Source of the DNA: Tissierellia bacterium
GTDB taxonomy: Bacteria; Bacillota; Clostridia; Tissierellales; Tepidimicrobiaceae
Assembly (NCBI GenBank): GCA_012735215.1
Contig: JAAYHX010000006.1
Coordinates: 1-64,000, forward strand
Direction: 5' to 3'
Length of the DNA: 64,000 bases
Shown here: one piece after another, positions 562 to 22,568 of the stretch
How the letters are laid out: each line of letters starts with the position of its first letter
How positions within the stretch are numbered: position 1 is the first letter of the stretch
Position numbers and translations under genes: made by a program
The notes under the pieces: model-generated
Told to the model about the DNA's origin: nothing
Database searches by the model: none
What the model saw: the letters and a program-made list of their open reading frames with translations, nothing else

Positions 562-743
562 ATATTCGTACTTATTTTCGCCTATTCCCCAACCCGTTGA
601 AATTACTGTGTTATGTATTTTAAATTTATAACCCTATCCCTCATACCCCAATTTTGTTGAAAAACTTTATTTTCAGGTTACAATTATCCTCACCAAACAA
701 ACTCCTTTCATTTTGCAAAATTTCAAAGCAAAAAAGTTTTTTC

Positions 744-918
744 AAAAACATGGTTTAATAGGGACAAGGAAAACCTTATAAACCATGTTTTTTATTATGG
801 TTTACTCCACATTTATTATAGGGAAAATGGGGATAAGGTTTATAAAAGTACAAGAAGGGTGTGAATAAGTTGTAAGGTTGTAGATGTTTTAATAGAATAT
901 ATGGTGTAAAATAAAGGT
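744..918 (+). repeat. Diverged repeat module, copy A (hairpin plus conserved upstream box)
   Basis: Nothing coding was recognised in the 630 bases from 361 to 990. This part holds a 14-base perfect hairpin with a T-run (744-757 with 779-792) and, at 865-918, a block that recurs at 5178-5229: ATAAGTT, then TGTAGATGTTTT, then GTGTAAAATAAAGGT. Copy B (5067-5229) has the same order, hairpin first and box last, and nearly the same length. Both copies end 50-75 bases before a gene start. The box could hold a promoter (TAAAAT as a -10 candidate) or an operator; that is inference. Confidence 0.5.
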
Positions 919-990
919 ATGTGGTACATATGATCAGCTTGCTGTGATAAAACCATAAGAAAATATATGATAAATAGGGTGTATATAGCT

Positions 991-1482
991 ATGAATAGCC
1001 TTCGCAAAGAAGTAATTGATGTCATGGATAGTATGAAGATTCAATATGATATTACTGAACATCCACCAGTGTATACTATAGAGGAAATGGATAAATTAAA
1101 TATTGACATTTATAATCAAGTAGTTAAAAACTTATTTGTTCGAGATGATAAAAAGAAAAAGTACTACTTGATAGTTCTACAAAAGGATAAGAAGGTTAAT
1201 TTGAAAGAAGTTAGGAATCAACTGAATTGTAGACCTTTAACTTTTGCGTCAGAAGAAGATCTGAATAAATATATGGGATTAAGCAAAGGCTCTGTAAGCC
1301 CCTTTGGCATTCTAAATGATACCGACTGTAGGGTAGAAGTGATTTTCGACAAAAGTGTATTATCATTTGAACGTATCGGAGTTCATCCAAATGATAATAC
1401 AGCAACTGTTTGGATTAATCCCAAGGATTTAGAATTAATCATAAACAGCCACGGTAATAGAATTAGTTATATTAATATTTAA
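991..1482 (+). CDS. YbaK/PrdX-type aminoacyl-tRNA deacylase domain protein
   Basis: This protein of about 163 residues belongs to the YbaK/ProXp family, which hydrolyses mischarged aminoacyl-tRNA in trans. The N-terminal pattern (YDITEHPPVYTIEEM) and the segments KNLFVRDDKKKKYYLIVL and SVSPFGILND are typical of the PrdX branch, whose genes often sit beside D-proline reductase clusters in Clostridia; no prd gene is present here. The ATG at 991 is preferred over 967 because an AGGGTG ribosome site lies 9 bases upstream. It is monocistronic, behind repeat module copy A. tRNA specificity cannot be deduced. Confidence 0.8.
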   Translation: MNSLRKEVIDVMDSMKIQYDITEHPPVYTIEEMDKLNIDIYNQVVKNLFVRDDKKKKYYLIVLQKDKKVNLKEVRNQLNCRPLTFASEEDLNKYMGLSKGSVSPFGILNDTDCRVEVIFDKSVLSFERIGVHPNDNTATVWINPKDLELIINSHGNRISYINI

Positions 1483-1576
1483 ATTATTGATGAAGCTGAA
1501 AAGGATGCATTTTATAAGTAGTGGGGATAGAAAAAAGTAATAAATTTTTCAGGGTTATTTTAGAGGAGATCTTTTA

Positions 1577-1957
1577 TTGATTTTCACAGGCGATGGTAGC
1601 TTGGCAAGGCATGAGTTTGGAATAATAGATTCCTTTGAAGAAAACAAATGGTATGATACATATGAACCTGATAAATATAATTGTATTTCTGTGGATGATT
1701 ATTTTATAGAGGAAATAATAGCAAGGTATTATAAAGAGTTGACGGCTATAAAAACATACTTTGTAATTTCAACACAGATAGGTAAGGGATTGGATGAAGC
1801 AGGGGTAACCATCATTCCTCCAGAATCCCTTGGACAGTTCAGGGATCTTATCATAAAGGCAAATAGCCACTTAAAGTCAAATGAACTTCAAATTCTTATT
1901 AAAATAATATCAGAGGCTATAGGGGAGAATAAGCACTTAATTCACTTTGGCATCTAG
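1577..1957 (+). CDS. Hypothetical protein, 126 residues
   Basis: The family is not recognised. A TTG start is preceded by GAGGAG at 8 bases, so translation is plausible. The protein is soluble and acidic, with no signal peptide or membrane segment. Its first half has many aromatic residues (KWYDTYEPDKYNCISVDDYF) and its second half looks helical. It reads in the same direction as its small neighbours, with about 95 bases before it and 55 after. A role as a small immunity- or effector-associated protein cannot be excluded or supported. Confidence 0.6.
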   Translation: MIFTGDGSLARHEFGIIDSFEENKWYDTYEPDKYNCISVDDYFIEEIIARYYKELTAIKTYFVISTQIGKGLDEAGVTIIPPESLGQFRDLIIKANSHLKSNELQILIKIISEAIGENKHLIHFGI

Positions 1958-2012
1958 CACTATGAAGGGTATCATTGTGAAATAATAATAATTTAAGGGA
2001 GGGGGTTAACCA

Positions 2013-2249
2013 ATGGAGTTTTTTATGGCACTATTTATTTTTCCATTAATATCATTCCTATTTGGAATAATTGGTCAGATATTAATAAAGAAAATATATA
2101 TAGTTGTTGGAATAACTTTTTTAGGATGGTTTATTGCTACCTTTACAATATTTAATGAAAGTTTCCTAATATGGGTATTTATTTATTCATTATTGGCTCT
2201 TCTGGGAGCACTGATAGCAGGTGCAATTCAAAAATATAGGAAAAAATAG
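2013..2249 (+). CDS. Small membrane protein, 78 residues
   Basis: Residues 1-20, about 26-48 and 50-70 are almost entirely hydrophobic, giving two to three membrane segments, followed by a basic tail (IQKYRKK) that should remain in the cytoplasm. A strong ribosome site (GGGAGGGGG) lies 7 bases before the ATG. No family was recognised. It stands in a run of small genes between 1577 and 2506 and may be cotranscribed with them. Confidence 0.6.
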   Translation: MEFFMALFIFPLISFLFGIIGQILIKKIYIVVGITFLGWFIATFTIFNESFLIWVFIYSLLALLGALIAGAIQKYRKK

Positions 2250-2305
2250 GACATATAATTTATAAAACATAAAGTTAATAAAATATATTTAAAGGGGGAA
2301 AAAAG

Positions 2306-2506
2306 TTGGATAGGTGGGAATACAAAACCATTAAATTTGCCTTGAAAGGTTTTACTGGAGGAATATTAGAGACAGAGGATTTTGATTATGAGCTTAATAA
2401 GTATGGCAGTCAAGGCTGGGAGCTGGTATCTTGCTTTACATCTAATTCAAGTTATGGTTATAGTAGAGATGCAATAGCAGTCTTTAAAAGAAAAAGCAGG
2501 CTGTAG
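2306..2506 (+). CDS. DUF4177 domain-containing protein
   Basis: This 66-residue protein matches the small DUF4177 family by its opening WEYKTIKF, the central LNKYGSQGWELVS and the closing AVFKRK, a compact fold of unknown function. The TTG start at 2306 follows AAAGGGGGAAAAAAG. Between this gene and the next (2507-2684) there is only a 20-codon ATG frame at 2547 with no ribosome site, which is not called. Confidence 0.75.
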   Translation: MDRWEYKTIKFALKGFTGGILETEDFDYELNKYGSQGWELVSCFTSNSSYGYSRDAIAVFKRKSRL

Positions 2507-2684
2507 GGAAATTTAGACCAATTTAGATGGATTTATTCATTCATTTATGCTAATAGGTATCTTGGTGTTCATTATTGGATTAGTAAATATGTTATCAAAT
2601 AGGAAATAACACACTATATTAGTACTTATTCTTTATCAAATCTATACCAGCAGATAAATGCCTATTTAAAGAGGAGAGAATTTG

Positions 2685-3113
2685 ATGAAGCACATCTTGA
2701 ACTTATCTCCAACAGAAGAGGATATCTTGAAGATCCGAAAAAAATTACAAGAGTATAATTCTGCATTTTTTGAAATAAAGGATGAACCTAGATTTGTTAT
2801 TTCAGTAGTTGATGAATATGGTGAGCTGATAGGTGGAATTGTATGTACTATTGTTGGACAATGGCTGGAAATAGATTTTTTGTGGGTCAGGGATGATCAA
2901 CGAGGTAGAGGTTTAGGTAAAAAGTTGTTATTTGAAGCAGAGAGAATAGGTATGGAAAAGGGATGTAAAAAAGCATTCTTAACTACTATGAATTTTCAGG
3001 CAAAACCGTTCTATTTGAAACATGGATATAAAATCGTGTATGTTCAAAAGGAATATCCCCTAATAAATGAAAAGTACTATATGGAAAAGACATTAATTAC
3101 ACATAAAGCTTAA
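2685..3113 (+). CDS. GNAT family N-acetyltransferase
   Basis: A 142-residue single-domain acetyltransferase. The acetyl-CoA-binding motif is clear (VRDDQRGRGLGKKLL), followed by a helix and the FYLKHGYK segment near the C-terminus. The form, with EIDFLWVRDDQRGRGLG and a final YYMEKTL, resembles GNAT proteins annotated in Firmicutes as acting on small molecules, but the substrate is unknown. The ATG at 2685 is preferred over TTG 2682 because GAGGAG lies 8 bases upstream. A hairpin at 3143-3188 ends the unit. Confidence 0.85.
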   Translation: MKHILNLSPTEEDILKIRKKLQEYNSAFFEIKDEPRFVISVVDEYGELIGGIVCTIVGQWLEIDFLWVRDDQRGRGLGKKLLFEAERIGMEKGCKKAFLTTMNFQAKPFYLKHGYKIVYVQKEYPLINEKYYMEKTLITHKA

Positions 3114-3142
3114 AGTAGAAAATCCTTATTCATCAATTAGAG

Positions 3143-3188
3143 AAAGCATGGTTATTAGGTTAGTGAAAGCCTTGTAAGCCATGCTTTT
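3143..3188 (+). terminator. Rho-independent terminator
   Basis: AAAGCATGG (3143-3151) pairs with CCATGCTTT (3179-3187), followed by Ts, 30 bases behind the acetyltransferase stop. The loop and arms resemble the hairpin at 744-793 (CATGGTTA, then CCTTGTAAGCCATG), so it may belong to the same dispersed family. Confidence 0.7.
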
Positions 3189-3366
3189 TGTTAAGCTTAA
3201 GAGTAGTTAAATGTTCTAAAGTTCATTAAAGGCCATTTTTCCTATAAATAGCAAGGATGATAATTAGTATAACTTATAAGAAAATTCAATAATTATTTAA
3301 TTTTAATAAGAATTATGATATTATTTTATCGTTATGAGTTTTTGACAAAATTTGGGGGGAAAAGAT

Positions 3367-5055
3367 ATGAATAAATTGGGAATGAAAATTTTAAGAATGA
3401 TTGGATTAATATCTATTATTTCAATACTTATATTGTTATTGTCAAACTTCTTGATTTTTAGATCCATGTTTTCTAATTTACAAGCTGAATCAGAAAGTAT
3501 TGCAAATGAATCTGTAAGTTTAATTGATGTAGGTAATTTGCAAAAAGTTATTAACAGTAAATCTATGGATAGCGATGAGTATAAGGAAATACAACAGTCT
3601 ATAATAGAGTTTAAAACTGATAAGGATATCAAATACTTATACATATTGGCCAAGGGAGCAGACAATAAGGCTTATATGCTAGTGGATGCATCCTTAAATC
3701 CATTTCCTATTGGAGAAGAATATGATTTGGAAGAAGAGATGGAAGAGGCATTTAACGGGAATATATCATCTACCAGCAAGCCTGTGTCAGATGAATATGG
3801 TACATTTATTTCCGGTTATGCTCCAATAAAAAACTCTACGGGGCAGATAATTGCAATAGTTGGAGTTGATAAAGATGTAGGAAGTTTCATATATATACGA
3901 GAGACTTTCACTAAAGCAACTCTTGCAGTAGCTATAGTTATTTTGGTTATGTCTATTCTAATGAGCGTTATATTCTCAAAGAGGATTTCTTCAAGTGTTA
4001 AGGACTTAAATGATGGATTAAGCAAAATGGCAGAGGGAGATCTCACAGCTTCTATAAGAATTAATACTAAAGATGAAATTCAAACCATTGCAGAGTCCAT
4101 TGATTATGTCAGAACCAACACAATAGACACCCTTAGTAATTTAAGACAGGCTTTTGACAAGGTAACTGAAAGGATTGATAACTTATCAGCAGTGTCAGAA
4201 GAGATGGCTGAATCATCTGAAGAAGTAGCTACCACTATACAGGAAGTAGCCAATGGAATGAACTCCCAATCTGATGAAATGGCTAAGATAATTGATATTG
4301 TGTATAACTTTGGTGTGAAGATTGATCAAACAGTAAAAGACGTGGGGGAAGTGAATTCGAAAATTGAGATAGTTAATTCTAAAGTTCAAAACAGCAATAA
4401 GGATTTAGCCATGCTTGAAGTTGCCATAAAGGACATAAATACTTCCTTTTCTGATGTTAAAAATGAGATAAAAGATCTGAGTACATACTTATCTCAGATA
4501 GGAGAAGTAACGAATCTTATAAATAATATTTCAGAGCAAACAAATCTTCTTGCTTTGAATGCTGCAATAGAAGCAGCTAGGGCAGGAGAGGCAGGAAGAG
4601 GTTTTGCAGTAGTAGCTGATGAGATTAGAAAACTAGCAGAACAGTCTAAAAGCTCAGCTTCAGACATAAACAAGATGCTTCATAATGTTATGGCTAAAAG
4701 TGACCTAGTTATAAGGACTTCTGACAATATGGATGTAGAATTAAGTGATCAGATTAAAGTAATTAATTATTCTATAAACTCATTTAAGGAAGTAATAGAT
4801 AATATTGAAGAAATCATTCCCAGAATTAATTATATAAGTAATAATATGAGTCATATTGACAATGAGAAACAGGAAATAATTCAAAGTGTTGAAGCAGCTA
4901 CAGCTGTTGCAGAAGAGGTTTCTGCCTCTGCAGAACAAATAGCAGCCTCTTCCCAGGCATTAAGCGCATTTTCACAGGAGGTGGCTTCTTCAACACAGGT
5001 TTTAAGTGAACTGTCAGAAAATATGGTAGATGCTATGAAGAAATTTAAAATATAG
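3367..5055 (+). CDS. Methyl-accepting chemotaxis protein
   Basis: A 562-residue transmembrane chemoreceptor. Order: short cytoplasmic tail, membrane segment about 10-32, extracytoplasmic sensor domain about 33-185 (Cache-like by length and by [18 protein letters not shown]), second membrane segment about 190-208, HAMP linker, then a long coiled-coil signalling domain. The conserved tip that binds CheA/CheW is at about residues 389-426 ([20 protein letters not shown]). The ligand is unknown. The ATG at 3367 has a GGGGGGAAAAG ribosome site. No other chemotaxis gene is nearby. Confidence 0.95.
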
Positions 5056-5066
5056 TTTTGTAGACA

Positions 5067-5229
5067 GCCATAGGGAAAAGGTATAGAGAATGCCTTGGAA
5101 CTATGGTTTTTTATTGGCCACCATTTTTAAAAGCAGAGTGAAAACACAGCTTATTATAGCTTGAGGGAAATATTGATATAAGTTCAAATATGTAGATGTT
5201 TTGCTGGTAATATAGTGTAAAATAAAGGT
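5067..5229 (+). repeat. Diverged repeat module, copy B (terminator-like hairpin plus upstream box)
   Basis: CCATAG (5068-5073) pairs with CTATGG (5101-5106) and is followed by a T-run, so the first part probably ends the chemoreceptor transcript. The last part (5178-5229) matches 865-918: ATAAGTT, TGTAGATGTTTT and GTGTAAAATAAAGGT in the same order. The block ends 52 bases before the flavodoxin-like gene and may carry its promoter. Confidence 0.5.
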
Positions 5230-5281
5230 GTTAGTATATATTAGTAGGGTTATATAAATTAAATTACTTAGGGAGGGGACA

Positions 5282-5812
5282 ATGAAGAAGGTAGCCGTTG
5301 TGTTTAAATCCAAATATGGAAGTTCAGAAAAGTATGCAAAATGGATTGCAGAGGATGCAGGTGCTGAAGTTTTTAAAGCCGGTGAAATCAAGGTGGATAA
5401 GTTAGAAGAATACGATACTATTGTATACTGTGGAGGGCTTTATGCTGGGGGTATACTTGGCTTTTCCTTAATTAAGAAGAATTATGACAAGCTTCATGAC
5501 AAAAAGCTTATAGTGGTTGCAGTAGGCGCTACTCTAAAAACAGGTGAGGCGATAGAAGAGGTTAAGGCACAAAATCTTACAGATGAAATGAAGGATAGGG
5601 TCCAGTTTTTTCTGCTAAGAGGTGGATTAAATTATAAGAAAATGAATTTTATTGATCGATTGTTAATGTTTTTACTGGTAAAGTCAGTAAAATTGAGAAA
5701 AACAGAGAAGCTTGATGAGGATAGCAAGGCGCTAATTGCTACTTATGGTAAGGTGATTGATTTTACAAACAGAGATGCAATTGCACCAATAATTCATGCT
5801 ATTAATAGTTAG
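5282..5812 (+). CDS. Flavodoxin-domain protein, HemG-like
   Basis: A 176-residue flavodoxin-fold protein. The FMN phosphate loop is the KSKYGSSEKYA segment at residues 9-19, and IVYCGGLYAGGI is the second flavin-contacting loop. The architecture (flavodoxin domain with a basic C-terminal region containing FIDRLLMFLLVKSVKLRK) resembles the oxygen-independent protoporphyrinogen oxidase HemG branch, but in Clostridia such proteins are generic flavodoxin-like reductases, so haem biosynthesis is not implied. A GGGAGGGG ribosome site precedes the ATG. It stands alone behind repeat module copy B. Confidence 0.8.
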   Translation: MKKVAVVFKSKYGSSEKYAKWIAEDAGAEVFKAGEIKVDKLEEYDTIVYCGGLYAGGILGFSLIKKNYDKLHDKKLIVVAVGATLKTGEAIEEVKAQNLTDEMKDRVQFFLLRGGLNYKKMNFIDRLLMFLLVKSVKLRKTEKLDEDSKALIATYGKVIDFTNRDAIAPIIHAINS

Positions 5813-5883
5813 GCTTATTACTGAATAAGTGAGCTTAATGTTAGGTTTAATACATTGTTTTATATGTACCAGGGGGTGTAAAA

Positions 5884-6729
5884 TTGAGCAGGGAAGTTAG
5901 CTTTCAAGCTCGTGTCAAAAAACATATGGGGAAGTATAAAGAAAGCAATTTAGGGATTAAGGAAGACGGTATATATTATGGCAATAAAAAAGAATATAAT
6001 CATATATTACCAGCTGAAAAAAGTCTGCTTAACATAATAGAAGACTACAGAGAAGATTTTTATAATTCATGCTATAGCAAAAATCTTCAATATCATCCAT
6101 GTTTTAATCACTTAAACTCATCTCAGGCAATGTGTATTAATTTCTTTTATCCATTAATTCGAGAAAATAAAATTCAGCTAATACTAGATATACTAGGGAT
6201 AGATGATGGACAGAACAATACAATTGAAGAGGTCTGCTTTGAAAAAGAATCCCAATTGGAAGAGGGAATGTCACGGAAAACTAATTTTGACTTTTATATT
6301 AATTTAAAATCTGGTATAGAAATATTCTTTGAGATTAAATATACCGAAAGTTCCTTTGGCAAAGCTGTCAGAGATGACCGGCACAAAGAAAACTACAATA
6401 AAGTATACAAGAGAATTCTAGATAAAAATAATGCAATAAAACAAGAACATAGCAATGAAGAGTTTTTTCTTAACAATTATCAAATAATGAGAAACATCAT
6501 TCACATTAGTGATAGTGCTTATGTAGTTTTTGTATGCCCAAAGGAGAATCGTAAAATTTATCATGAAGCCTTAGAGGTAGGAAATGCTGTAATAAGAGAA
6601 GAATATTTAAACCATTTTATACTGTATGCATGGGAAGAAATGATAGAAGAATTGCTTAAAAGGCTTAATTCTAATAAATTGATAGATTACTATAGCAATG
6701 AGTTTTCTTATAAATATTTAGAATATTAA
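5884..6729 (+). CDS. PGN_0703-type PD-(D/E)XK nuclease-like protein
   Basis: A 281-residue protein with a PD-(D/E)XK nuclease core: Asp136 in TNFDFYINL and the E-x-K pair Glu150/Lys152 in FFEIKYTES. The layout resembles proteins annotated as PGN_0703 family putative restriction endonucleases. No methyltransferase or specificity gene is beside it, so a role in restriction is only inference. The TTG start at 5884 follows AGGGGGTG. It is flanked by a flavodoxin-like gene and a membrane protein gene in the same direction, without evident functional links. Confidence 0.7.
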   Translation: MSREVSFQARVKKHMGKYKESNLGIKEDGIYYGNKKEYNHILPAEKSLLNIIEDYREDFYNSCYSKNLQYHPCFNHLNSSQAMCINFFYPLIRENKIQLILDILGIDDGQNNTIEEVCFEKESQLEEGMSRKTNFDFYINLKSGIEIFFEIKYTESSFGKAVRDDRHKENYNKVYKRILDKNNAIKQEHSNEEFFLNNYQIMRNIIHISDSAYVVFVCPKENRKIYHEALEVGNAVIREEYLNHFILYAWEEMIEELLKRLNSNKLIDYYSNEFSYKYLEY

Positions 6730-6791
6730 AGCTGTGTTAAATATAACAGAAAGCTTACATAGTCAATTATAAATTAATGTGGGGGATTAAT

Positions 6792-7313
6792 ATGGAGGAA
6801 GCTAAAATCATCATAAATACGATCATGACAAAGGAAGATTATAGGAAGTTTTTATATATTGCAACCTTCAGGAGAAATAAAGTTATACTTCCTTTGCTGG
6901 GGTTGATTTCTTTGATGGGAAGCCTACTTATTAGTTTAAATGCTGGTTACTTAAACTTTTTAAGACTAATTATAGGTTGGATTGCCTTGTTTGCACTGGC
7001 AATTATAGTTGTTCTAATTAAAATTGAAAAGCGAAATGCCCAACGGATAAAAACAGATAAAACAGGTACCTTTGATAGCATTAATACTTTAAAGTTTTAT
7101 GACGATAGAATTGTAATGGAGAATAAGGCCCTTAAATCAACAGGTGAATTAAAGTATAGTCAATTCTATGCCTTAATGGAAAGTAAAGATTATTTTATTT
7201 TTTATTTGACCATAAACCAGGCATCCTTGATAAGAAAAAAGGATATAGACAATCTAAGTGAATTCAAGGAGTTTATTATTGAAAAGTTGGGGGACAGATA
7301 TAAGAGGATATAA
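6792..7313 (+). CDS. YcxB-like membrane protein
   Basis: A 173-residue protein with a short N-terminal part (TMTKEDYRKFLYIATFRR-like), two close hydrophobic segments at about 31-51 and 56-76, then a cytoplasmic C-terminal domain with the pattern FYDDRIVMEN...LKYSQFYALMESKDYFIFYLT, typical of the YcxB-like C-terminal domain. Function is unknown in this family. The ATG at 6792 is chosen because GGGGG lies just upstream; an in-frame ATG at 6777 has no ribosome site. Confidence 0.75.
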   Translation: MEEAKIIINTIMTKEDYRKFLYIATFRRNKVILPLLGLISLMGSLLISLNAGYLNFLRLIIGWIALFALAIIVVLIKIEKRNAQRIKTDKTGTFDSINTLKFYDDRIVMENKALKSTGELKYSQFYALMESKDYFIFYLTINQASLIRKKDIDNLSEFKEFIIEKLGDRYKRI

Positions 7314-7441
7314 GGGGAAAGAAGAATAACTCAAAGGGATTATGGAACTAATTTAAGGATTTATGGGAAAATAGGGACATGAAGATATTGTAGCTCTTCT
7401 TTACATTAGGGGATATGTAGAAGATACGAGGAGGCGAAGTA

Positions 7442-7876
7442 ATGGTAAGACCAATAAAATGCAGAAGGGTTAAGTTTATTCCAGAAAACACCTATTTTAT
7501 ACCCTATGGTAATGGGAAGTGTGAAGTAGAAGAGATTATCCTCAAGGTTGAAGAACTTGAAGCCATGAGGTTAAAAGATATAGAAGGACTAAATCAGGAA
7601 GAATGTGCAGAGAGTATGCAGGTATCAAGACAGACTTTTCAAAACATCATAGATAGCGCAAGAAGGAAAGTCGCTATGGCACTAGTGCAGGGCAATGCCA
7701 TACATATATGGGGAGGCCATTATACTTCAGGTTCGTGCAGATTTAAATGCCTAGACTGTGGTGAAGTCTATAGCATGAGTTATGAGAAGACTAGGCATAT
7801 ATGCCCTTCCTGTGGCTCAAATGAAGCCCTTTGTGAAAAGAAGAACAGGTTTTGTCACAGGCGGCTGGAGAGATAA
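7442..7876 (+). CDS. DUF134 (UPF0251) DNA-binding protein, copy 1
   Basis: A 144-residue protein with a sigma-70 region-4-like helix-turn-helix (LNQEECAESMQVSRQTFQNI, about residues 53-72) and a C-terminal zinc ribbon built from C99/C103/C106 and the CPSC pair near 121-124. Family members are annotated as putative DNA-binding proteins and often sit beside Mrp/NifX-type iron-sulfur genes. A paralogue lies at 47460-47891 directly behind mrp; this copy stands alone. The ATG has a GAGGCGAAG-type ribosome site. Confidence 0.85.
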   Translation: MVRPIKCRRVKFIPENTYFIPYGNGKCEVEEIILKVEELEAMRLKDIEGLNQEECAESMQVSRQTFQNIIDSARRKVAMALVQGNAIHIWGGHYTSGSCRFKCLDCGEVYSMSYEKTRHICPSCGSNEALCEKKNRFCHRRLER

Positions 7877-21522: not shown

Positions 21523-22568
21523 GACATATCTTAGAAAAGCTGTACTCCAAAAACTCTTTAACAAGGGAAGAGCTCTTATACTTGTTGGATAAGCTAGAGG
21601 AAGATGGCAGAGATTACTTGTACAGCTTAGCCTACAATACTACTTTAAAAACCTATGGAAACAGAATATTTGTTAGGGGCCTGTTAGAGTTTACAAATTA
21701 CTGTAAAAATAACTGCAAGTACTGTGGTTTAAGAAGGGACAACAAGAAGATTGAAAGATATAGGTTGTCTAAAGAAGAAATACTTGCCTCTCTAGAGGAA
21801 GGAAATAAACTAGGATATAAGACTTTTGTACTTCAGGGTGGAGAGGATCCCTATTATACAGATGAGATACTAATAGATATAGTGAAAACCATAAAGAGCA
21901 AATACAAGGATGTGGCGGTAACCTTGTCTATAGGAGAAAGAAGCAGGGGAAGCTATGAAAAGCTTTACCAGGCAGGAGTAGACAGGTTTCTCCTAAGACA
22001 TGAAACAGCAACTAAGAACCTATACCATAGCCTGCATGAAGGCATGTCACTAGAAAAGAGAATGGAGTGTTTATTAAATCTGAAAGAAATAGGCTATCAG
22101 GTTGGAGCAGGATTTTTAGTTGGATTACCAGGTGAGTCCAAGGAAAGCCTTGTAGACAATCTATTGTTTTTAAAGAGGCTCCAACCAGCCATGGTGGGAA
22201 TAGGACCATTGATTTCCCATCCTGATACTCCATTAAGGGGATTTAACAATGGTTCTGTGGAAACTACCCTAAAAATGATTTCTTTAACTAGGCTATTACT
22301 TCCCAATGCCCTTATACCAGCTACTACAGCATTAAATACCCTTTCAAAGGAAGGTTTAGAAAGAGGCATATTGGCAGGTGCAAATGTAGTTATGCTAAAC
22401 CTTTCCCCTGTTGAAATAAGAAGGAAGTATGAATTATATAAGAATAAGGAAATTACAGATGCTCACCAAATAAGGAAGATTGAAGATAGGGTAAAGAAGG
22501 TAAACTTCCAAGTGGACATGGGGAGGGGAGATCACATTAAGTATAATAGGAGGGTTAATAATGTATAG
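21519..22568 (+). CDS. hydE: [FeFe] hydrogenase H-cluster radical SAM maturase HydE
   Basis: A 349-residue radical SAM enzyme. The [4Fe-4S] motif is C62-x3-C66-x2-C69 (NYCKNNCKYCGLRR), followed by LQGGEDPYYTDEILIDI, LSIGERS and the TIM-barrel pattern LRHETA...GAGFLVGLPGES. HydE helps make the diiron subcluster of the H-cluster, including its dithiomethylamine ligand. It overlaps hydG by 8 bases. Confidence 0.95.
   Translation: MRHILEKLYSKNSLTREELLYLLDKLEEDGRDYLYSLAYNTTLKTYGNRIFVRGLLEFTNYCKNNCKYCGLRRDNKKIERYRLSKEEILASLEEGNKLGYKTFVLQGGEDPYYTDEILIDIVKTIKSKYKDVAVTLSIGERSRGSYEKLYQAGVDRFLLRHETATKNLYHSLHEGMSLEKRMECLLNLKEIGYQVGAGFLVGLPGESKESLVDNLLFLKRLQPAMVGIGPLISHPDTPLRGFNNGSVETTLKMISLTRLLLPNALIPATTALNTLSKEGLERGILAGANVVMLNLSPVEIRRKYELYKNKEITDAHQIRKIEDRVKKVNFQVDMGRGDHIKYNRRVNNV

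What the first reader, a model, noticed from the sequence alone, without database searches (positions are those of the whole stretch)
744..918. Diverged ~170-base module repeated upstream of two unrelated genes
744-918 and 5067-5229 share order and several exact words: a T-tailed hairpin, then ATAAGTT, TGTAGATGTTTT and GTGTAAAATAAAGGT. Both end shortly before a gene (PrdX-like; flavodoxin-like). The hairpin at 3143-3188 also resembles the first one. This may be a common regulator site, a small RNA gene or an old repeat.
Basis: seen in the sequence. Interest (0 to 1): 0.5.

Follow-up and report, generated by a model that had tools for sequence, protein, structure and literature searches.

The report
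Decayed Tn7-like transposon ends with leader
The repeated stretch is a worn-down piece of a family of jumping DNA that, in relatives of this bacterium, usually sits just behind the recR gene; it joins the element's hairpin-bearing end to a constant short leader found in front of changing carried genes.

Summary
The repeat is real. It is made of two parts of a clostridial Tn7-like transposon family.

H is the transposon end: TGT terminus, candidate TnsB sites, T-tailed hairpin. Profiles built without the window's copies hit the window at 689-799 (E 1.8e-17), 5048-5115 (1.2e-6) and 3141-3193 (6e-5). In relatives H lies behind recR at 26 of 29 loci examined in one search; 16 machine-read gaps from stop codon to terminus are 12-16 bp. 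tns genes lie in islands with H or P.

P is a ~75-bp leader (873-943, E 1.7e-12; 5185-5255, E 1.5e-7). It follows tnsD or a tnsD remnant in 9 of 31 copies, and 23 of 31 face a ribosome-site-plus-ORF start within 160 bp. The genes behind it differ.

In the window tns genes are missing; a tnsD query found nothing in this assembly. I read P as the cargo's promoter and leader, which is inferred. Three papers checked by passages or word counts do not name recR as a Tn7-like attachment site.

The parts
633..680 (-). Weak inverted copy of the inner end site (best site 657-674); perhaps the far side of a preceding unit
   Evidence: profile H on the minus strand, E 0.05 only; site matrix 15.3 at 657(-)
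689..799 (+). Transposon end H, decayed: outer candidate TnsB site 693-710, inner site about 728-744, T-tailed hairpin 744-796
   Evidence: profile without window copies, E 1.8e-17; R3 707-805 (training member)
873..943 (+). Leader element P, copy c1
   Evidence: profile without window copies, E 1.7e-12
967..1482 (+). First gene behind P c1: Pfam tRNA_edit (YbaK/PrdX-type) protein; start may be 991
   Evidence: E 1.9e-34
1577..1957 (+). Gene without Pfam match; relatives recognised by a shared motif in seven other P loci
3141..3193 (+). Third hairpin of the H family, without recognisable end sites, behind an acetyltransferase gene
   Evidence: profile without window copies, E 6e-5
5048..5115 (+). 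Truncated end H of the other stem type: inner site and hairpin; overlaps the last codons of the chemoreceptor gene ending at 5055
   Evidence: profile without window copies, E 1.2e-6, model positions 52-120; 88% over 73 bp to a copy in G386
5185..5255 (+). Leader element P, copy c2
   Evidence: profile without window copies, E 1.5e-7
5282..5812 (+). First gene behind P c2: Flavodoxin_5
   Evidence: E 7e-23
5884..6729 (+). REase-ARP nuclease-family gene, probable cargo
   Evidence: PF22558 E 1.1e-47; no PADLOC match
6777..7313 (+). YcxB-like gene; a close look-alike directly follows P in L101
   Evidence: likeness seen by eye
7442..7876 (+). DUF134 gene; a look-alike lies behind P in L105
   Evidence: likeness seen by eye

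Best explanation
744-918 and 5067-5229 are two decayed, tns-less derivatives of one family of Tn7-like transposons. Each keeps (1) a transposon end with candidate TnsB sites and a T-tailed hairpin (complete in c1, truncated in c2) and (2) the leader element P, which elsewhere directly follows tnsD or lies behind the recR-proximal end and in front of the first cargo gene. In relatives the end stands about 15 bp behind the recR stop codon; by analogy with Tn7 at glmS, TnsD would recognise the 3' end of recR and TnsABC insert the element there (position shown, mechanism inferred). The hairpin would stop transcription at the element's edge and P would start transcription of, or provide the 5' leader for, the cargo behind it (inferred). 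In the window tns genes are absent, so these units are probably immobile and persist as leader-plus-cargo remnants.
For: Profiles without window copies hit H three times and P twice. P starts 5 and 7 bp after two tnsD stop codons and behind seven further tnsD 3' remnants. H at recR: 13 of 32 rows, 26 of 29 loci, among them all 11 loci fetched from the window's own family. tnsA, tnsB, tnsC and tnsD domains by Pfam in these islands. The window shares cargo-type genes with other P loci. P faces a gene start in 23 of 31 copies, against 0 of 31 in the reverse control.
Against: No tnsD relative, and no recR or 16S, was found in the own assembly, so neither the attachment site nor a functional transposon can be shown here. 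P did not follow the ~42% identical tnsD genes nor a decayed 75% identical one. 22 of 31 P copies show no tnsD remnant. The count of candidate end sites in the whole window (12) hardly exceeds shuffles (5-11). The far end and a target-site duplication were not determined. P has no good -35 at fixed spacing (17-21 bp between its blocks, by eye), the promoter scan gave no excess (44 against 42.7) and the terminator scan did not list the hairpins (its loop limit is 8).
Confidence: 0.8

Rival explanations
1. P is the operator or promoter of a host regulator or alternative sigma factor that co-regulates unrelated genes (a true regulon).
For: P is conserved over about 75 bp and faces gene starts in 23 of 31 copies.
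Against: The genes behind it differ between genomes; most genomes with a match have one copy; block spacing varies; tnsD remnants lie directly upstream in 9 of 31.
Confidence: 0.1
2. P marks a cargo-capture point: new genes are placed behind it by a dedicated recombination, as at an integron attI site.
For: Different genes stand between P and the same following gene in several genomes (the gene at window 1577; the PadR operon in L062 and L100).
Against: No integrase or cassette-side repeat was found or systematically searched for; deletion and ordinary recombination give the same picture (L062 has a truncated acetyltransferase right behind P).
Confidence: 0.15
3. The hairpins are only the ordinary terminators of recR and other host genes, and the likeness is convergent.
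For: The hairpins at 3141 and 5048 do follow genes; T-tailed hairpins are common there.
Against: The sequence, including loop and upstream site, is conserved across families, and it accompanies the TGT terminus where no recR precedes it, for example L138, L149, L150, L154, L155, L158, L163.
Confidence: 0.1
4. c2 is a recent local duplicate of c1.
For: Both lie 4.3 kb apart in the same orientation.
Against: c2's hairpin has the other stem type and is closer to a copy in another genome (88% over 73 bp) than to c1 (64% over 198 bp); c1 has the outer site, c2 does not.
Confidence: 0.03
5. The module is a small RNA gene.
For: A T-tailed hairpin is part of it, and its stem covaries (7 of 15 pairs).
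Against: The hairpin comes before P, not after it; no Rfam match; no fold in P. The covariation mostly reflects one switch between two stem types shared by four rows.
Confidence: 0.03

Closest known systems
Tn7 and TnsD-guided Tn7-like transposons (glmS, tRNA, parE, yhiN attachment sites; PMC11406308, passages seen)
   Same: TnsA/B/C/D-type genes, subterminal site arrays, TGT terminus, fixed insertion just behind a conserved gene, variable cargo
   Different: Attachment gene is recR; the recR-side end carries a conserved T-tailed hairpin; a constant leader P stands before the cargo; the window's copies lack tns genes
Integron attI with its cassette promoter (recalled)
   Same: A constant element ahead of exchangeable genes
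   Different: No integrase or attC-type sites seen; only the layout is alike
MITE-like non-autonomous transposon derivatives (recalled)
   Same: Ends kept, transposase genes lost
   Different: These carry cargo and a leader, and the far end was not determined

Membership tests
Tn7-like transposon, window copies as intact element | tnsA, tnsB, tnsC and tnsD/tniQ genes | tested here: not met
   tnsD query: no match in G000 at E 1e-10; no tns domain among the ten proteins of 967-7876 that were scanned; tnsA/B/C not searched separately in G000
Tn7-like transposon, window copies as derivative | end with TGT terminus and site array | tested here: inconclusive
   c1 matches the end profile at E 1.8e-17 with a degenerate terminus; c2 truncated; overall site count not above shuffles
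Tn7-like transposon, window copies as derivative | fixed position behind the attachment gene | tested here: inconclusive
   recR not found in the assembly and the window opens its contig
Tn7-like transposon family in relatives | tns genes | tested here: met
   Pfam TnsA, Mu-transpos_C (TnsB), AAA_22/TniB (TnsC), TnsD and TniQ in G536 and, for B, C and D, in G659
Tn7-like transposon family in relatives | fixed attachment site | tested here: met
   26 of 29 loci behind recR; 16 machine-read gaps of 12-16 bp, four loci unread by the script
Tn7-like transposon family in relatives | 5-bp target-site duplication and defined far end | not tested
   far end of recR-type units not delimited
Tn7-like transposon family in relatives | transposition guided by TnsD to recR | not testable with these tools
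   needs an experiment
Bacterial promoter (P) | -35 and -10 boxes at fixed spacing | tested here: not met
   TAAAAT-like -10 near-invariant; upstream block at variable distance (17-21, by eye); scan without excess
Small RNA or riboswitch (P) | conserved structure or Rfam match | tested here: not met

The most novel reading that the evidence does not exclude
P is the fixed gateway of a cargo-exchange system: a clostridial Tn7-like family homing behind recR keeps one constant, hairpin-insulated leader, and incoming genes are repeatedly placed right behind it by a dedicated mechanism so that they are expressed at once, an integron-like capture point inside a Tn7-like transposon.
Probability: 0.12. 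Interest if true: 0.8.

Novelty: new variant of a known kind. Interest (0 to 1): 0.5.

Why it matters
[quoted passage not shown] This family has a defined position (behind recR), a marked end, and a constant short element in front of changing genes. That gives a handle for finding tns-less remnants that searches from transposase genes would miss, and for testing how cargo is expressed and replaced. It also shows that a 'shared promoter module' seen by eye can be a transposon scar.

Tried and rejected
Host regulon: the exact pattern gave only c1 and c2 in the own genome. R1 gave one further full-length but weak match on contig C5 (E 0.011), which reads as part of an inverted repeat (seen), and a fragment cut by the start of contig C12 about 107 bp behind glmS (E 0.38 genome-wide; 0.0036 over the stretches). 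rRNA-operon promoter: considered because hits lay near contig ends and recR; no rRNA among Rfam matches in 11 and 12 fetched stretches. dif/Xer-like site: a resemblance recalled from memory, not tested formally. P as a TnsB site: best matrix score 8.7 in one copy, 4.8 or less in the other 25 scored, against 16.7-25.3 for the sites that made the matrix. P as leader peptide: frames compared by eye; the start codon is not conserved. Fold of P: none. Plasmids and phages: best listed E 0.01 and 0.06, no record with 80% coverage (20 of 68 and 20 of 117 records listed). Viral contigs: 0 for one exact pattern. Exact pattern in 84,980 species: 3 hits, one real; the other two lack the flanking conservation. 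PADLOC on nine window proteins: nothing.

Rows dropped before counts: 9 rows (19.8-24.7 bits) and 5 (21.1-23.3 bits), not followed, some looking like coding sequence; 2 of 6 rows (one locus already held, one of 9.3 bits); 2 of 34 rows had no locus and were not checked for recR; only rows with a new locus (29) were checked. 17 of the 34 rows are training copies of R3, and 8 of the 13 recR cases are among them. Some genomes recur under new handles (for example G536 as G957, G445 as G868), so the counts and 94/95 overlap. L099 and L103 are identical and L105 is 98% identical over the 1.7 kb compared, so they are not independent. The P profile leaves out the window's letters, but its members were gathered by searches seeded with c1 and c2.

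Full report
1. The observation. The two stretches resemble each other far beyond chance: Smith-Waterman score 96, against a maximum of 63 in 400 paired dinucleotide shuffles and 60 for the best of 357 other tiles of the window. In the own genome (1.89 Mb, 25 contigs) blastn finds only the second copy clearly (E 1.7e-5; next 0.06). The hairpins also resemble one another, the c1-c2 pair by a narrow margin.

2. The leader element P. An exact pattern scan of 84,980 species gave one true outside copy, in Clostridium prolinivorans ahead of an acetyltransferase-like gene. A sequence-only profile of these three copies (R1) found 19 of 292 genomes around that species at E 0.003, that species included. 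A profile of 12 copies (R2) found 17 of 391 genomes around a second centre at E 0.001, one with five copies. P is about 75 bp, with a core close to TGTAAAATAAAGGTAT and an upstream block close to GTAGATG. It has no conserved RNA fold. Of 31 copies, 23 face a ribosome-site-plus-ORF start within 160 bp; the same test on the other side and strand gave 0 of 31. The genes behind it vary between genomes.

3. The Tn7 connection. In genome G536 P starts 5 and 7 bp after the stop codons of two tnsD genes (Pfam TnsD E 1.2e-122 and 7.3e-110). One of these operons, on contig C9, has recognisable tnsA, tnsC and tnsD and an ORF in the tnsB position that was not itself scanned; the other, on contig C31, has a short tnsB ORF and no tnsA ORF in front of it. 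Counting these two, 9 of 31 P copies have a tnsD 3' end directly upstream. A tnsD query matched 9 of 19 genomes that hold P, the own genome not among them. P follows only those two tnsD genes; it was not found beside the others, neither the ~42% identical ones nor a decayed 75% identical one.

4. The hairpin module H. The hairpin is the inner part of a transposon end: terminus TGTCTACATC or similar, an outer site like CAAATAAACTCCTTTCA, an inner site like GTAAATAAAGTNGTATC, then the hairpin with its T run. Calling these TnsB sites is inference from such arrays beside tns genes. Seven of 15 stem pairs show changes on both sides, mostly through one switch between two stem types. The profile R3 matched 15 of 19 P genomes at E 0.001 (half of its 34 rows are training copies). 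It also matched 41 of 395 relatives of the window's genome at E 1e-4, among them 12 of the 19 other members of its family.

5. recR. In one search, 13 of 32 rows follow the recR stop codon. In 12 of these the terminus, nine times with TGT and three times degenerate, stands 14-15 bp behind it (counted by eye); one is truncated. Several of the other rows abut pyrimidine-rich DNA that looks like the far side of another unit. All 11 loci fetched from the window's own family follow recR; rows of that family without a locus were not examined. On the 3.6-Mb contig of G659 three H copies at 127.1, 148.5 and 169.4 kb have the same orientation, the first behind recR, and tnsB, tnsC and tnsD stand at 160.7-166.2 kb. 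A tnsA-like ORF before them was judged by eye; the part I scanned had no Pfam match.

6. Back to the window. Profiles of 21 H and 24 P copies from other genomes hit 689-799 (E 1.8e-17), 5048-5115 (1.2e-6) and 3141-3193 (6e-5) for H, and 873-943 (1.7e-12) and 5185-5255 (1.5e-7) for P; the best chance match in five shuffled windows had E 0.027. c1 keeps both sites and the hairpin; c2 keeps the inner site and hairpin and overlaps the last codons of a chemoreceptor gene; the hairpin at 3141 stands without recognisable sites. The number of site-matrix hits over the whole window (12) hardly exceeds shuffles (5-11), so the site evidence rests on the aligned end, not on counts. c2's hairpin is closer to a copy in another genome than to c1. 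A motif of the gene at 1577-1957 recurs in seven other P loci; in one of them, L098, that gene stands before P. recR and 16S rRNA were not found in the assembly (the recR search had no positive control), and the window opens its contig, so the attachment site cannot be seen here.

7. Mechanism. Shown: positions, orientation, co-occurrence. Inferred: TnsD recognises recR, TnsB binds the sites, the hairpin ends transcription at the element's edge, and P is promoter or leader of the cargo. Against a standard promoter: no good -35 at fixed spacing and no excess in the promoter scan. I give about 0.5 to P as promoter or leader and 0.15 to P as a capture site.

8. Known or new. Tn7-like transposons, their end arrays and their variable cargo are known (PMC8649781, passages; PMC11406308, passages). 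recR is not a word in PMC10293859 or PMC11406308, and in PMC8649781 the passage seen is a reference title on RecR proteins. Searches for Tn7-like or Tn7 with recR listed one other paper, PMC8987985, which I did not open. Most subscription papers and all supplements were out of reach, so novelty of the recR site is not proven.

Noticed in passing
L179:90-510 (G000 contig C9, start): A compact stretch with sites like AATAAAAAAGTCGTATCA, a CATGG-type hairpin and inverted sites further on, no cargo gene: looks like a mini-element of a related family (R3 E 6.8e-4).
   Followed up: partly
L069:1-34 (G000 contig C12, start): A piece of P cut by the contig end, about 107 bp behind glmS, the classic Tn7 attachment gene.
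   Followed up: partly
whole assembly G000: recR and 16S rRNA were not found although completeness is given as 98.96%; contigs may break at these islands.
   Followed up: partly
L170-L172 (G659 C1, 127-129 and 148.5-149.7 kb): Behind H, candidate end sites alternate in orientation roughly every 100-145 bp for about 1 kb, an unusually long array.
   Followed up: no
window 5048-5055: The last codons and stop of the chemoreceptor gene overlap the inner transposon-end site.
   Followed up: no
window 22126-22172: A weak further hairpin match to the H profile (E 0.01), inside an ORF.
   Followed up: no
L062 and L100: The same PadR-type operon lies behind P with different genes in between.
   Followed up: no
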